From Selenomonas ruminantium AC2024 (GTDB lineage Bacteria > Bacillota > Negativicutes > Selenomonadales > Selenomonadaceae): a DNA stretch of 64,000 bases. Within the stretch, counting starts at the first letter, position 1. The number at the start of each line of letters is the position of its first letter. Shown here piece by piece: positions 3,448-62,654 of this stretch. Where the stretch lies: assembly GCF_000687995.1 (NCBI RefSeq), contig NZ_JIAC01000001.1, positions 1,860,001-1,924,000 on the forward strand, given 5' to 3'. The notes below the pieces were generated by a model. That model made no database searches. It was not told the origin of the DNA and saw only the letters and a list, made by a program, of their open reading frames with translations. The translations under genes and the position numbers were made by a program.

Positions 3448-3780
3448 TCAAAGCACCTCCGCTTTGGCCTTGAGGGCTGCATAATCCTTGGGATCTACTG
3501 CTGAAAGTTTTGCAGCACCAAAATCCTGCAGGAGCTTACGCACCTCGTCTGTATGCCCAGCACTGCTTTTCTCGGCCAAAACTGCTCGGACTTCTTCCAG
3601 CGTCACCTCGGGCGGAGCAGGATCAGGCTCAGGCTCTTTTGTCGCCTTTGAATCCGATATTGCCTGCTGTTCGCCAGCATCGCGCAACAGATAAATCGCC
3701 AGCGTTTCCAGCCCCTCTGCCAGTTTGTGCATGCTGTCTACCACACTGGCCAAAGTCTGCATTTCGTCTTCCTTCATCAT
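3448..3780 (-). CDS. Small phage replication-cluster protein
   Basis: A 110-residue protein: helical N-terminus, a proline/glutamate-rich linker (KEPEPDPAPPEVT) and a C-terminal block (VRAVLAEKSSAGHTDEVRKL) seen in many Firmicute phage proteins next to DUF2800. No enzymatic motif. Its ATGATG start overlaps the stop codon of the 31-residue peptide gene upstream (ATGA), and its stop lies one base before the DUF2800 ATG, so translation of the three is probably coupled. Function unknown; I infer an accessory part in element replication only from context. Confidence 0.65.
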   Translation of the reverse strand: MMKEDEMQTLASVVDSMHKLAEGLETLAIYLLRDAGEQQAISDSKATKEPEPDPAPPEVTLEEVRAVLAEKSSAGHTDEVRKLLQDFGAAKLSAVDPKDYAALKAKAEVL

Positions 3781-3872
3781 TTGCGATACCTCCTCAGAAT
3801 TTTCCGTGCGGCGTTCCTGGCTATCAGGCTGATAACCAAAAGAATTGCCGCAGCATACTTGCTACTATGCAT
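3777..3872 (-). CDS. 31-residue peptide, one hydrophobic helix
   Basis: A very short reading frame, ATG at 3872 behind AAGGGGGAATGTGAA. The peptide starts MHSSKYAAAILLVISLIARN and ends in a basic tail (RKILRRYRK). The stop codon TGA overlaps the ATG of the next gene by four bases, which argues that it is translated as the coupling leader of that gene. The helix could insert in the membrane, with a positively charged end inside. No family recognised. Confidence 0.5.
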   Translation of the reverse strand: MHSSKYAAAILLVISLIARNAARKILRRYRK

Positions 3873-3919
3873 TTCACATTCCCCCTTCACCATTAAGAGG
3901 ACATTTTCAGCCCCTTTGG

Positions 3920-4456
3920 TCACCCTGCCAGCAAAATATTTTTCAAAAATTCTATAATCCGAACTTTACGCTTATGCACAGCAGTCTTGGACCGCCCCAT
4001 TCTGGCAGCAGCCTCCCGCTCTGTCTCATCACCAATCAGTACACCCAGGAGGTCATAATCTTCCTTATCCAGCTGGTCTATAGCTTCATGCAGTTCCTCT
4101 ACAGCCACTCTTTTAAGGAAGGCTTCCGCTACATCCTTATGAACCGGTACTTCCTTAGAGCCATTTTCTTCCATACGATTCAGCGAATACTGCCGATATA
4201 CGGGATGAGTGCAGCTCCCGCAGTAACCATCGCACTTAGAAGTCCCCTTATAGATACATTCCAGCCCACGCTGTTCAGCCTTCACAGCACTCCACTGAGG
4301 GCGCATGATTTCCTTGTATAAATCTTCCGATACTGGTACATACAAGCCGCTCTCCTTGATGTAGTAGAACTTCTTATACTTACGCTGCCACCGCTTGAAC
4401 TGCTTTTTCTCCACCGTAACGATTTTGTTGCTGACATAAATGCGAACCATATCCAT
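3920..4456 (-). CDS. Sigma-70 region 4-like phage regulator
   Basis: About 178 residues from the ATG at 4456, chosen because AGGAGG lies nine bases upstream. The C-terminal 60 residues resemble sigma-factor region 4: acidic helix (AIDQLDKEDYDLLGVLIGD), then a helix-turn-helix (EREAAARMGRSKTAVHKRKV). The middle has four cysteines (CIYKGTSKCDGYCGSC), a possible zinc site. Proteins like this sit at the head of phage replication blocks and may redirect host RNA polymerase or act as simple DNA-binding regulators. It is the most upstream gene of the minus-strand block; its 5' flank is a large inverted repeat. Confidence 0.65.
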   Translation of the reverse strand: MDMVRIYVSNKIVTVEKKQFKRWQRKYKKFYYIKESGLYVPVSEDLYKEIMRPQWSAVKAEQRGLECIYKGTSKCDGYCGSCTHPVYRQYSLNRMEENGSKEVPVHKDVAEAFLKRVAVEELHEAIDQLDKEDYDLLGVLIGDETEREAAARMGRSKTAVHKRKVRIIEFLKNILLAG

Positions 4457-4787: not shown

Positions 4788-7466
4788 ATGGACCACGAAT
4801 ATGACTATTATCTCTGCGGAGGCACTTTTTTTAGCCTTCTCGTACAGGCAAAATCAACTGATAAATCTGAGCCCGCTATGATGAAGGGCTTACTTAACAT
4901 TATGGACGCCAACTATCAGGCCCCTCCAAAAAGTACCGCTGAATCATTTAAAGGCAATGTGTCAGATTACAAATATTGTAAGAAAGGCTACACGAAGTAT
5001 CTAAAATTCAATAATCGACAATTAAGAGACGGTTTTGATAATGCTGTAAGGGAGCACTACGATGCTTTAATTGAAAAAATGTCTCTATTCGCAAATGAAT
5101 ATATCGATTTGAATCATTCTGCCCAGTGGCTAGGAGATGCCCTCATAGATTTGCTTTATTTTGACCCAAAAATAAAGCACAGCCAAGTATTCATCATTGA
5201 TAGCGGCAATCGTACGAAGACAAAAAAAGAGCTCTGCGATTCGCAGAGCTTAACGTTGGAAAATTTACTATTAGGCCTTTGGCACTTCATAATTACGAAA
5301 CGGTGGGATAGTAACAAACAGGGAGCTACCACAATTACAGACTGGTATACCGCCCCAGCTAATGGACAGCGTCGTCATTTCAATAGTGATATAGGCAGAT
5401 TCCCTGAACATGATATATCTTTTTTCACCAGAGGAGTCAATACGATACGCTTGACAACAAAAAAGGAGGAGCAGCCTACTCTTCCCTCCAATGAAATCAT
5501 TTCTGAGAGCATAATAAATGTGTATCTACGCAAAGCTCACGACAAGTATGGCAAGATGAAAACCTTACTATACACGGACGCAGAACGAGAATTTTACGAC
5601 TTCTACGTTTGTAACACCATCTACCAGCGCAGTCGCAATTACACTTATAAGACGATAGAAGCCTCTATAAGTGCCTTTAATCGTATATCCAATTTTATAC
5701 TCATCTCTGGCACAGGCGGACTTGGAAAATCAATGCTGATGCGCCATTTGCTGTTGAGCTCAGTTCTAAATTATGAACCAGGCGATCGCATACCTATATT
5801 CCTGCCCCTTAAAGATTTCGATGAAAACTCATTACTCGGCTTTGCCTATGATTGTTTCACAGCACGAATCCCTGATGAGTATATGAATATAAATCTGAAA
5901 GATGATTTCCAGACTGCTTTGCAAGAAGGAAAATTTATCCTGTTGTTTGACGGTATGGACGAAATAAGTTCTGAGGCAGAGCAACTTTTCCAGTTGGAAC
6001 TAGAAAAAATCACAGATAAGTTCCCCGAAAACATTTTTATCATTTCATCACGTCCTTATAAGCAGTTTATAAGTTTAAGCAAGTTTTATGAATTACATTT
6101 ACAACCGTTCTCAAAGGTGCAATCACTAGAATTAATTCAAAAGCTGGATTTCCGGCCAGACGAACCGGACATTAAGAGACAGTTTTCATTATTACTAGAT
6201 ACAACGCTCTATAAGACGCATAGAAGTTTTGTGGAAAATCCTTTACTGTTGACAATTATGTTGATGACATTTGAACAATTTGCAGAAATACCAGACAAGA
6301 TGCATATCTTCTATCACGATGCCTATGTTGCCCTTGCACAGAAACATGATGCAACCAAAGGGGCGTTCAAGCGAACCTTTCACACGGGTTTAACGGCTGA
6401 GGAATTCGAAAATTGTTTGACAGCGTTTTGTGGCATAACATATATTGATGAGAAAATAGACTTTACAGAAGAGGAATTGCGCGACTATTATTCTCAGATA
6501 GACGATAACTTGTTGCAACCATCCCGTGCGTTTGTGCGGACTAACGAAACTAGAAATCTTTACAAACCATCTGCTGAAAACTTCATCTACGATATGACTG
6601 TGAATCTCTGCCTAATGTATAATGAGAGTCTAAAATACCATTTTACACATCGCTCATTCCAAGAGTATTTCTGTGCCTTGTTCTTCTCCCAGCAGACGGA
6701 TGAAGACTTAAAAACCGTAGCAAAATTTTTTGAAACTCGTGGCAAAGGTAGCGACAGCACTTTTTCTATGTTATACGACATGATTCCTAAGAAGGTAGAA
6801 CAATTTATCTTATTACCATTCCTGGAAAAACTAATAAACGAGTGCGAGAAAAATAATGGTTTTCCATACTTTCTTAATAAAATGTACCCAACTATCTATT
6901 ACGAAGAAGGTGAAGTTGACGAAGTCCATACCAACACATCAAATTCTTATATCTACGAATTCATAGCACGCCATATACTCGAAATAGAACCTGCTGAGTA
7001 TGATTTCGATTTCAAGAACGAATTCGTAGATGCTTCTTATGTGTATTACCTTTGTAATTGGGACAAACCGCGATTAGAATTTATAAATGGCAAAGCCTAT
7101 GAAAATGATCCCGATGAAATAGAAATGTGTACTGATGATTCCTTACCACCAGGGTACATAGAAAAGTTTGGTTATCCTGACGTAGTTGGCCACTCTTTTA
7201 GTTTCAATACGGATGATGTTATAGAATCACCAAATTTCAACGATGATTATTATACCGATTTTGATTTTACCAACGAGAAAGAAGTGGCAAAAGAATATGT
7301 GGAGATATCCAGTTATCCAGATATCTGTGAGGATCTTTTAAGCGATAGTTCCCCTTTGAGAAAAGAATACGAACAAATGAAAGCATATCGGCAATCATTG
7401 ATAAAAAGAGGCAAACAATCTCATCAACAATTTTCCAGCCTATTTAAGAAAAAACGGCAAAAATAA
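4788..7466 (+). CDS. NACHT-domain NTPase, probable anti-phage defence protein
   Basis: An 892-residue protein. The ATG at 4788 follows GAGGT nine bases upstream. Residues 1-290 are a region I cannot assign. A NACHT module follows: Walker A GTGGLGKS near residue 308, Walker B FILLFDGMDEI near 385, and the sensor-like SSRPY near 420, then a winged-helix-like stretch up to about 640 (HRSFQEYFCALFF, typical of NACHT proteins). The last 200 residues are strongly acidic and aromatic (DFDFKNEF, DDYYTDFDF) with a basic tail; no leucine-rich, TPR or WD repeats are visible. Bacterial NACHT proteins are STAND ATPases and many protect against phages. Location beside a phage replication block on the opposite strand fits an element-borne defence gene. 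The AT-rich composition differs from its neighbours, suggesting transfer. Confidence 0.85.
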   Translation: MDHEYDYYLCGGTFFSLLVQAKSTDKSEPAMMKGLLNIMDANYQAPPKSTAESFKGNVSDYKYCKKGYTKYLKFNNRQLRDGFDNAVREHYDALIEKMSLFANEYIDLNHSAQWLGDALIDLLYFDPKIKHSQVFIIDSGNRTKTKKELCDSQSLTLENLLLGLWHFIITKRWDSNKQGATTITDWYTAPANGQRRHFNSDIGRFPEHDISFFTRGVNTIRLTTKKEEQPTLPSNEIISESIINVYLRKAHDKYGKMKTLLYTDAEREFYDFYVCNTIYQRSRNYTYKTIEASISAFNRISNFILISGTGGLGKSMLMRHLLLSSVLNYEPGDRIPIFLPLKDFDENSLLGFAYDCFTARIPDEYMNINLKDDFQTALQEGKFILLFDGMDEISSEAEQLFQLELEKITDKFPENIFIISSRPYKQFISLSKFYELHLQPFSKVQSLELIQKLDFRPDEPDIKRQFSLLLDTTLYKTHRSFVENPLLLTIMLMTFEQFAEIPDKMHIFYHDAYVALAQKHDATKGAFKRTFHTGLTAEEFENCLTAFCGITYIDEKIDFTEEELRDYYSQIDDNLLQPSRAFVRTNETRNLYKPSAENFIYDMTVNLCLMYNESLKYHFTHRSFQEYFCALFFSQQTDEDLKTVAKFFETRGKGSDSTFSMLYDMIPKKVEQFILLPFLEKLINECEKNNGFPYFLNKMYPTIYYEEGEVDEVHTNTSNSYIYEFIARHILEIEPAEYDFDFKNEFVDASYVYYLCNWDKPRLEFINGKAYENDPDEIEMCTDDSLPPGYIEKFGYPDVVGHSFSFNTDDVIESPNFNDDYYTDFDFTNEKEVAKEYVEISSYPDICEDLLSDSSPLRKEYEQMKAYRQSLIKRGKQSHQQFSSLFKKKRQK

Positions 7467-59276: not shown

Positions 59277-59986
59277 CTATAAGCCCTGCCACGGCGCTCT
59301 GAACGCAGGTAATGACCTTATCTGTTTATCCTGCAGTTCATAAACTATGCCGTTATCTGCCAGTTCTCGCAAAAATGCATTTAGATAAACAGGGCTTTCA
59401 AACTTCTGCATGAAATCCAGTGTAAATCTGCCATTTACCGCTGAGATTTGAATGGTGATGTCCATAACAGTGGCACTCCAGGCGTGGAACTCTTTTATAT
59501 ATTTTTCCGCTTCTCCGAAATTCGCTTTTCCCACATAGCTCACATTGGCCGCAGCAAATCGATTGGCAGCCTCATCAACCTTTGCCATCATCTCCAGTCT
59601 TTCCTTATGCGTTCCCTTTGCCAAAAGCATTTTGGTCAAGCCGGCCATATGCGCCACGCCGGACAGTACCATCTCTTCATTTGCCTGTGCCGCAGTCCTA
59701 TTCCTATATGCCTTCACCTGCTCAGGGAGTGGCAATTTACGCAGCTGTTCATCATATTCCAGAAAAGCACCTCCGACCAGGCTTTGATGAGCCCGGGGTG
59801 CATGCAGGGCCTGGCGCTGATTAACGCACAAAATTACGGATACCGCTCCATCGTGGTATCCACTGCCCTGCGTAGTACCACAGGGTCAACAGCATCCTGC
59901 AGCCGTATACGGATTTTAATTGTATATGGATTATCCTTACGTGAACGATAAAGGGGAATGATTTCGGTAAACAGTCTCTGTTCCAT
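59277..59986 (-). pseudogene. Decayed condensation-fold acyltransferase
   Basis: ATG 59986 (GGAGGTGCTGGC upstream) starts MEQRLFTEIIPLYRSRKDNP ... VDTTMERYP and stops at TAA (59837-59839) where PYF would be expected. A second open part (about 59277-59780, another frame) continues with SYVGKANFGEAEKYIKEFHA and MDITIQISAVNGRFTLDFMQ, the C-terminal half of a condensation-domain or alcohol-acetyltransferase-like protein. Roughly the middle 200 residues are missing. The gene is therefore dead, with an internal deletion and frame loss. Related enzymes acylate alcohols or amines. Confidence 0.7.
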
Positions 59987-61856: not shown

Positions 61857-61913
61857 ATGGGAATAAAAAAATCCCTAAAAAGAATTAACACTTTTGAGCG
61901 ATTAGGGATATAA
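61857..61913 (+). CDS. 18-residue cationic peptide overlapping a hairpin
   Basis: ATG 61857, eight bases after GGAGAG, reads MGIKKSLKRINTFERLGI, stop at 61911-61913. Within it ATCCCTAA (61871-61878) and TTAGGGAT (61902-61909) pair perfectly, with an inner AAAAG/CTTTT, so translation would open the hairpin. It lies 35 bases before the bacteriocin-like gene and may be a leader peptide or a signal peptide. Very short, so uncertain. Confidence 0.4.
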   Translation: MGIKKSLKRINTFERLGI

Positions 61914-61948
61914 AGAACAGAAGAAAATTATTTAGAGAGGTGATTACC

Positions 61949-62177
61949 ATGAAAGAGCTGATTCGTAATAAAATGAATGATACCGACTTAGGCAATGTAG
62001 TTGGGGGGGAATAAGCCCGAAGAAAAAGCCCCAAAGAAAAAGCAGCCTAAGATTGAAAAAGTTCCTGTTCCCGTTCCACCAATTAATATCATTCCTGTTC
62101 CACCTTTGGACATAGACAAAATCGATATTTCCTTTCCTTCAGGAAAAAAGTCCCCAAAAAATGAAAAGAAAAAGTAA
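61949..62177 (+). pseudogene. Double-glycine peptide precursor frameshifted at a G7 run
   Basis: ATG 61949 follows GAGAGGTGATTACC. It encodes MKELIRNKMNDTDLGNVVGG and then, because of seven G at 62003-62009, hits TAA at 62012. The last residues (DTDLGNVVGG) form the double-glycine leader recognised by C39-peptidase exporters. With six G the frame would continue for 55 codons: a lysine/proline-rich core (NKPEEKAPKKKQPK, VPVPVPPINIIPVPP, SGKKSPKNEKKK) ending at TAA 62175, just before a terminator. The gene therefore looks like a bacteriocin or signal-peptide precursor that is out of frame in this sequence. Phase variation by slippage, a real mutation, or a base-call error in the run all fit. 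Confidence 0.65.
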
Positions 62178-62190
62178 TTAAGATGGTGAA

Positions 62191-62229
62191 AAGAAGGTGA
62201 GACACTCTGTAGCAGTTGTTCACCTTCTT
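62191..62229 (+). terminator. Terminator of the peptide precursor
   Basis: AAGAAGGTGA pairs with TCACCTTCTT, followed by TTTT, 14 bases after the frame-corrected stop. Confidence 0.8.
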
Positions 62230-62271
62230 TTTTCATGCCCGCGATTACACACTAGCTACCATCAATAGTCA

Positions 62272-62389: not shown

Positions 62390-62654
62390 TTATCGTTTGC
62401 TGGTTACGCCAATCTCCGTATATATCATGCCATGTTTGCCACGTTCTGACCGCATTAGGGAGATATGTTCTATGACCATTTCTCCCTGTGGCGGCTCGAC
62501 TTCAGGCAAAATCGTCTTGCCGTGATAAGTTGCCTTGCGAACCACTGTAATATGTGGATTAAACCGCCACGCCGGAAGCTTTTAATCGTGACTGAAAAGC
62601 CTCCAAAGCATCTATCATAGGGTCCGTAAACTGAATGCTAATAAAAAGCCTCAT
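62390..62654 (-). pseudogene. thpR: ThpR (2'-5' RNA ligase family) remnant
   Basis: ATG 62654 overlaps the previous stop (ATGA). The first 32 residues MRLFISIQFTDPMIDALEAF ... are the start of a 2'-5' RNA ligase/cyclic phosphodiesterase; then a stop, and the sequence resumes in another frame with RFNPHITVVRKATYHGKTIL ... ISLMRSERGKHGMIYTEIGV, the C-terminal HxTxxR-like motif (HITVVR). The middle, including the first HxT motif, is missing. Dead, in operon with the cobalamin gene. Confidence 0.75.

What the first reader, a model, noticed from the sequence alone, without database searches (positions are those of the whole stretch)
61949..62177. Double-glycine peptide precursor switched off by a G7 run at its own cleavage site
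The reading frame gives a 20-residue leader ending in LGNVVGG and then stops two codons later. Removing one G from the run of seven at 62003-62009 opens a 55-codon lysine/proline-rich core ending just before a terminator. A homopolymer exactly at the leader/core junction is a place where slippage would turn the peptide on and off. A peptidase-exporter was not seen in the window. I recognise the core as no known bacteriocin.
Basis: partly seen in the sequence, partly recalled or inferred. Interest (0 to 1): 0.75.

Follow-up and report, generated by a model that had tools for sequence, protein, structure and literature searches.

The report
Broken member of scattered secreted-peptide family
This interrupted small gene is one copy of a scattered family of small, probably exported peptides in rumen Selenomonas that share a promoter and leader but carry unrelated cores and seem to be run by a sigma factor encoded beside their exporter; its run of seven Gs looks more like a mutation of this copy than a switch.

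Summary
In detail: an ATG at 61949 opens a 20-residue leader ending VVGG, a G7 run covers the GG codons, the frame then stops, and the adjoining frame runs to 62177 before a terminator-like hairpin. The two frames belong together: same-genus genome G011 has one intact 70-codon homologue with matching 5' region and core. It has no long G run, and no other decoded relative has one above six. GG precursor: supported. Conserved on/off switch: not supported, though without reads or strains it is not excluded.

The larger finding is the promoter. ACACTTT-N8-11-GGGATATAA occurs 14 times in this genome and 74 times in 13 of 22 genus genomes (reversed control 1). In this genome 13 of 14 sites precede GG-type leaders; 12 of these have similar 5' ends but mostly unrelated cores. 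The genome has two C39 exporters, each with an ECF sigma gene downstream. Sigma-B type and motif co-occur over 121 family genomes (18 both, 4 motif only, 5 sigma only, 94 neither), and 13 of 28 such sigma loci have the motif downstream. I infer an ECF-sigma-controlled, dispersed, exported peptide repertoire. Transcription, export and activity are untested.

The parts
61888..61913 (+). promoter-like motif ACACTTT-N10-GGGATATAA, followed by AGAACAGAA; proposed ECF-sigma promoter
   Evidence: Pattern found 14 times in the own genome; PSSM score 48.2 against 34.6-58.1 for the 87 distinct sites it was built from; no sigma-70-type site found here
61935..61942 (+). ribosome-binding-site-like GAGAGGTG
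   Evidence: read from sequence; aligned with GAGAGGAG in L002
61949..62014 (+). ORF as it stands: 20-residue double-glycine leader plus Glu, then stop
62003..62009 (+). G7 run over the GG codons where the leader and core frames part
   Evidence: only G or C run of 7 or more in the window; not present in the homologue
62010..62177 (+). core-coding frame (lysine/proline-rich), out of frame with the leader
   Evidence: homologous to the core of L002; codon-position pattern
62187..62234 (+). terminator-like hairpin and T run
   Evidence: z -3.97; not reported by the simple scan

Best explanation
The locus is one member, disrupted in this assembly by a frameshift at a G7 run, of a dispersed set of double-glycine-leader peptide genes. 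Members share a promoter-like motif, a 5' segment and a leader of about 20 residues but have different cores. Inferred mechanism: an ECF sigma factor (sigma-B type), encoded downstream of a C39/NHLP-type exporter, directs RNA polymerase to the motif at scattered loci; the exporter's C39 domain cuts after GG (or GA, GS) and the core leaves through the ABC/HlyD/TolC-like channel. Shown by computation: the homologue, the motif, its co-occurrence and physical linkage with sigma-B, the exporter genes, similar 5' ends with unrelated cores. Inferred: use of the motif by sigma-B, cleavage, export, and a competition- or signal-peptide role. For this copy a fixed mutation or base-call error is likelier than a reversible switch.
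For: Intact homologue. Motif 74 times in 13 of 22 genus genomes against 1 reversed-control match. In the own genome 13 of 14 sites precede GG-type leaders; for the 12 besides the window gene the segment from motif to GG is 0.82-0.93 identical over 66 pairs, while the next 90 bases have median 0.59 (range 0.52-1.00), the shuffled baseline. Two C39 hits over the cut-off in the genome; the L035 operon passes the NHLP cut-offs for TIGR03794, TIGR03796 and TIGR03797 and has an ECF sigma gene next. Co-occurrence 18/4/5/94 in 121 family genomes, and 13 of 28 sigma loci with a same-strand exact motif 0-8 kb downstream, none within 8 kb upstream. Matrix sites above score 20 at 16 of 30 sigma loci, against a maximum of 7.6 in 300 shuffled loci.
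Against: 35 of 87 distinct decoded sites were not called GG-type by regex: some are GG genes missed by the regex (L041, L191), others are signal-peptide proteins, small ORFs beside sigma, or have no clear gene. 14 of 30 sigma loci have no site nearby. No site was found upstream of the exporter operons in L035 and L036. Four family genomes have the motif without close sigma-B, five the reverse. Genomes are related, and the 59% identity line was drawn after seeing the table, so the p values overstate. The window gene is only 0.62-0.68 identical to the own members in the 5' segment. No promoter, cleavage or export was measured.
Confidence: 0.65

Rival explanations
1. Phase-variable gene: slippage in the G run moves the core in and out of frame and the population holds both states.
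For: G7 lies exactly at the leader-core junction; an own paralogue has an in-frame G6 at the same codons (L136:6648).
Against: The tract is not conserved in the homologue or in the other 51 regex-called precursors; a neighbouring gene is broken too; only one state has been seen.
Confidence: 0.15
2. Base-call or assembly error: the strain has an ordinary intact gene.
For: Homopolymers are common error sites (recalled); the homologue is intact.
Against: Most long genes of the window read as intact frames, so indel errors are not rife; no reads were available to test this base.
Confidence: 0.25
3. The motif is a sigma-70 promoter or the site of another regulator encoded near the exporter, not an ECF-sigma promoter.
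For: Sigma-B and exporter are neighbours, so co-occurrence does not separate them well; ATAACA with an 18-base spacer to TATAAA is a partial sigma-70 match (own reading of the sequence).
Against: The sigma-70 scan finds no site. G004 and G013 have C39 hits but no motif; G004 has no sigma hit at E<=1e-8 with the sigma-A query and G013 only 39-42% ones. At 15 of the 16 sigma loci with a matrix site it lies downstream of sigma.
Confidence: 0.2

Closest known systems
NHLP/NHLM bacteriocin export systems (Haft et al. 2010, PMC2887384; two passages seen by term search)
   Same: Exporter proteins at L035 pass the curated cut-offs for the HlyD, C39-ABC1 and ABC2 models
   Different: Three precursors of the family and the window core match no NHLP or Nif11 leader model; leaders are about 20 residues; an ECF sigma gene follows the exporter; precursors are scattered. 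The words sigma and Selenomonas do not occur in that paper's main text
Prochlorosins (listing and start of abstract of PMC10783134; details recalled)
   Same: Many precursors with similar leader and diverse cores
   Different: Nif11 leaders and a modifying enzyme; no shared ECF promoter known to me
LahT-type C39 transporters with several precursors (PMC6363468, passages)
   Same: C39 domain that cuts diverse cores off related double-Gly leaders, also after GA and GS
   Different: Precursors in one cluster with Nif11 leaders; no sigma link in the passages seen
Sublancin of Bacillus subtilis (PMC4336743, listing and start of abstract)
   Same: Double-glycine precursor in a paper that names extracytoplasmic function factors; ECF involvement in its control is recalled
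   Different: One glycopeptide gene cluster, not a dispersed family under one motif
Poly-G contingency loci (recalled)
   Same: G tract inside a reading frame
   Different: Tract short, not conserved in relatives, no variant seen

Membership tests
NHLP/NHLM export system | C39-ABC1, ABC2 and HlyD-type components over curated cut-offs | tested here: met
   L035: TIGR03796 978.7 (cut-off 853.3), TIGR03797 740.4 (709.4), TIGR03794 229.3 (156.2). In L036 only the C39 domain and a TolC-like protein below its cut-off (151.4 of 225.15) were tested
NHLP/NHLM export system | Precursor with NHLP or Nif11 leader | tested here: not met
   NCBIfam: no family for L002, L018 and the window core; for a fourth precursor only a weak CTB-bacteriocin match, 12.3 bits against cut-off 32
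Double-glycine exported peptide | Short N-terminal leader ending in GG before a separate core | tested here: met
   L002 and sister genes; the window leader itself
Double-glycine exported peptide | Cognate C39 exporter in the genome | tested here: met
   Two hits over the cut-off, 117.4 and 115.7 bits against 22; that they accept this leader is not shown
Bacteriocin | Kills or inhibits other bacteria; immunity gene | not testable with these tools
   No activity test possible; immunity genes were not searched for systematically
ECF sigma factor | Sigma-70 regions 2 and 4 / ECF superfamily model | tested here: met
   Sigma-A: Pfam Sigma70_r2 and r4_2 over cut-off, TIGR02937 120.1 of 42.9. Sigma-B type from G003: TIGR02937 109.8. 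The own sigma-B was not scanned itself; it is 41% identical to sigma-A
ECF sigma factor | Sigma-B recognises the shared motif | tested here: inconclusive
   Co-occurrence and adjacency only
Phase-variable contingency locus | Repeat tract in the frame whose length decides expression | tested here: met
   G7 at the junction of two frames of one gene
Phase-variable contingency locus | Tract kept in relatives | tested here: not met
Phase-variable contingency locus | Both states present in a population | not testable with these tools
   No reads; one genome of the species held

The most novel reading that the evidence does not exclude
Rumen Selenomonas and Anaerovibrio keep a scattered, fast-changing repertoire of secreted peptides built as cassettes: a constant promoter-5'UTR-leader segment joined to exchangeable cores, switched on together by an ECF sigma factor encoded with the NHLP-type exporter. 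Recombination in the constant segment swaps cores, and single members drop out by frameshift, as in this window.
Probability: 0.55. Interest if true: 0.78.

Novelty: new variant of a known kind. Interest (0 to 1): 0.6.

Why it matters
If right, one sequence motif would list much of the small-peptide secretome of common rumen bacteria, including genes too short or divergent for the family libraries tried here, and tie it to one testable regulator and exporter. A term search of the main text of a 2026 survey of bacteriocins in the Hungate1000 rumen collection found neither Selenomonas nor Anaerovibrio. It would also be a case of constant leader and variable core in which the constant part reaches back into the promoter.

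Tried and rejected
Chance frame: rejected on the homologue and codon-position pattern; frame length alone would not have done it. Phage- or plasmid-borne family: no support; a motif pattern had 0 matches in viral contigs, the L002 peptide found no relative there, and two queries (one 118-aa member, one 281-base stretch of another) had no match in the plasmid collection. Window core in genome contigs: 238 pattern stretches, none confirmed. Of the weak matches, L003-L012 and L017, L019-L021 were not used as relatives; L003, L019 and L020 were read, the others judged from the tables. L015, L016 and L018 are GG precursors of the family, but with weak E-values to the L002 query (0.007 to 0.135); my first reading of L015 looked at the wrong coordinates. 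The third C39 hit of the own genome is below the cut-off, in a 259-aa frame, and is not counted as an exporter. Literature: ten searches; searches found no paper; the others gave listings, in which I saw nothing on this regulon by title or start of abstract (searches listed 20 of 58, 10 of 38 and 15 of 18). Three papers were opened, by term search only.

Full report
What is in the window. The sequence is as described: ATG at 61949, 20 residues ending VVGG, a Glu codon, stop at 62012-62014; seven Gs at 62003-62009; an adjoining frame open to the stop at 62175-62177; then a hairpin with a T run, which the simple scan did not report. G7 is the only G or C run of seven or more in the window.

Is it a gene? 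The window lies in a one-contig genome of 2.83 Mb. Same-genus genome G011 has an intact frame, 70 codons from its ATG, whose core is 63% identical over 49 residues, E 4.5e-13, with an alignable 5' region and leader. It was the only match below E 0.01 besides the window itself in the 60 genomes. G011 contig C7 (429194 bases, site at 6634-6668) equals in length and site position the record SVCA01000002.1, Selenomonas ruminantium isolate SIG242; that the window's own genus is Selenomonas in this sense is inferred from such matches. In a 29-codon core block the differences by codon position are 3, 6 and 18, and 15 of 21 unchanged residues have a changed codon. The two frames were therefore one protein-coding gene. 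Open length alone is weak: 525 of 20000 shuffles stay open.

The G run. The homologue reads GGCGGC there. Among 52 precursors called by regex the longest G run at the site is 2 in 33, 3 in 12, 4 in 2, 5 in 3, 6 in one own paralogue (in frame) and 7 only in the window gene. The regex set is not clean: L105 and L125 are signal-peptide proteins and L121 is doubtful, while L041 and L191, which carry GG, were called non-GG. The neighbouring gene at 59277-59986 (minus; acetyltransferase-like by my own reading, not by a family search) is also broken: its 183-residue piece lies in a 202-aa frame here but in frames of 429, 430, 480 and 427 aa in G009, G003, G007 and G011; in G006 the frame is 189 aa. 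Other own members are short or mosaic, for example a 25-residue frame at L136:13218. A fixed mutation or a base-call error is simpler than phase variation, but without reads the switch is not excluded.

The promoter and the family. Upstream lies AACACTTT-N10-GGGATATAAAGAACAGAA. The strict pattern was found in 11 of 41 relatives with no reversed-control match and in 31 stretches of the species collection, titled Selenomonas ruminantium, Anaerovibrio or uncultured Veillonellaceae. The relaxed pattern ACACTTT-N8-11-GGGATATAA occurs 14 times in the own genome and 74 times in 13 of 22 genus genomes; the reversed pattern occurs once, in G005. In a family sample it occurs in 22 of 121 genomes. Of 87 distinct sites 65 have spacing 10 and 20 spacing 9. 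By regex 52 of 87 distinct downstream genes are GG-type; leaders resemble MDKKFMNKMDDMELDMVAGG and cores differ widely. The rest include signal-peptide proteins (MSLKKVFPLLFLL..), 69-86-aa ORFs resembling the one after sigma-B, and sites with no clear gene. In the own genome 13 of the 14 sites precede GG-type leaders, one with VVGS; the other precedes a 61-residue ORF without GG. For the 12 besides the window gene, the segment from motif to GG is 0.82-0.93 identical over 66 pairs, while the next 90 bases have median 0.59 (range 0.52 to 1.00) and shuffled cores 0.59. A nearly identical core stands behind three different leaders (L103:2087, L135:4348, L136:13777), and one copy in L136 begins inside the shared 5' segment, as a recombinant would. 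The window gene is an outlier, 0.62-0.68 in that segment.

Exporter and sigma factors. The genome has two C39 hits over the Pfam cut-off. In L035 an adaptor-like protein, HlyD-type (TIGR03794), C39-ABC1 (TIGR03796) and ABC2 (TIGR03797) genes are followed by an ECF sigma gene, sigma-A. In L036 the C39 gene is followed by a 926-aa ORF (not scanned), a TolC-like gene (below its cut-off), a second sigma gene, sigma-B (3485-4039 minus, 41% identical to sigma-A), and a 75-aa ORF. In the genus, sigma homologues at E<=1e-8 and the motif are both present in 12 genomes, motif only in 1 (G018), sigma only in 1 (G013), neither in 8 (Fisher p 2.4e-4). In the family sample, with sigma-B at 59% identity or more, the counts both / motif only / sigma only / neither are 18/4/5/94 (p 1.6e-13); outside the own genus 11/3/5/89 (p 4e-9); with any sigma at E<=1e-8 20/2/42/57 (p 2.9e-5). 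The 59% line was drawn after seeing the identities, and genomes are not independent, so these p values overstate the case.

Linkage. I took 28 sigma loci: 23 from the family sample and, the sigma-B-like locus of five further genus genomes. At 13 of 28 an exact motif lies on the same strand 0-8 kb downstream; at none within 8 kb upstream, though short contigs limit this. A matrix scan of the 30 sigma loci fetched (up to 1.5 kb either side) finds a site above score 20 in 16; the maximum over 300 mononucleotide-shuffled loci was 7.6. In 12 of the 16 the best site is not an exact pattern match, and in 15 of 16 it lies downstream of sigma. They include four of the five sigma-only genomes (G087, G061, G111, G078; not G106) and three below the identity line (G103, G023, G022). 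The matrix was trained partly on sites in the same loci. The own sigma-B is followed by such a site, score 35.9. Against: 14 of 30 loci have none nearby, and none was found upstream of the exporter genes in L035 and L036. G004 and G013 have C39 hits but no motif; G004 has no sigma hit at E<=1e-8 with the sigma-A query, G013 only 39-42% ones. This favours sigma-B over the exporter as partner of the motif, on two genomes. An AAC-containing -35 and about 16-17 bases to the -10 would suit an ECF promoter (recalled); the sigma-70 scan found no site.

Mechanism. Most likely sigma-B transcribes the scattered genes, the C39 domain removes the leader after GG/GA/GS and the core is exported. What the cores do is unknown; size, diversity and turnover suggest competition peptides or signals. 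Cleavage of diverse double-Gly leaders, and after GA and GS, is documented for the C39 protease LahT150 (PMC6363468, passages).

Novelty. The parts are known; I did not find the arrangement (ECF sigma beside the exporter, one motif, scattered genes of constant leader and variable core) in ten searches of the held library, most of which gave listings only. Passages of three papers were read by term search: the Haft 2010 main text holds neither sigma nor Selenomonas, and the Hungate1000 survey main text neither Selenomonas nor Anaerovibrio. Subscription papers were not searchable, so this is no proof of novelty.

Noticed in passing
window 59277-59986 (-): Gene that I read as acetyltransferase-like (not scanned) is broken into short frames here but matches frames of 427-480 aa in four same-genus genomes.
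   Followed up: partly
window 62390-62654 (-): Two short frames that read like pieces of one RNA ligase/phosphodiesterase (LigT-like) gene, out of frame with each other; own reading, not searched.
   Followed up: no
L036:3173-3400 (-) and like ORFs of 69-86 aa (L038, L102, L128, L147, L179-L184, L190): Small ORF after sigma-B, and similar ORFs behind the motif in other genomes, often ending DELDxxAAAG before a short tail; no Pfam match for the L036 one. A long-leader precursor or a sigma regulator are both possible.
   Followed up: partly
L137, L049, L056, L124: A conserved core of 98 residues (FDYGYGRGKDIWVDGKKYYVV..) behind a VVGS site recurs in several genomes; no Pfam match for the L137 form.
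   Followed up: partly
L136 near 15300 (-): GG-peptide gene that starts inside the shared 5' segment directly after another member, as a recombination product would.
   Followed up: partly
L131:6264-6416 (+), L136:6744-6899 (+), L136:14937-15170 (-): Further GG-leader ORFs in the own genome without the exact motif, so the repertoire is larger than the motif count.
   Followed up: no
L051, L112, L141:7194: A signal-peptide protein (MSLKKVFPLLFLLTLMLSSSAFAEK..) stands behind the same motif in three genomes, so non-GG secreted proteins may belong to the regulon.
   Followed up: no
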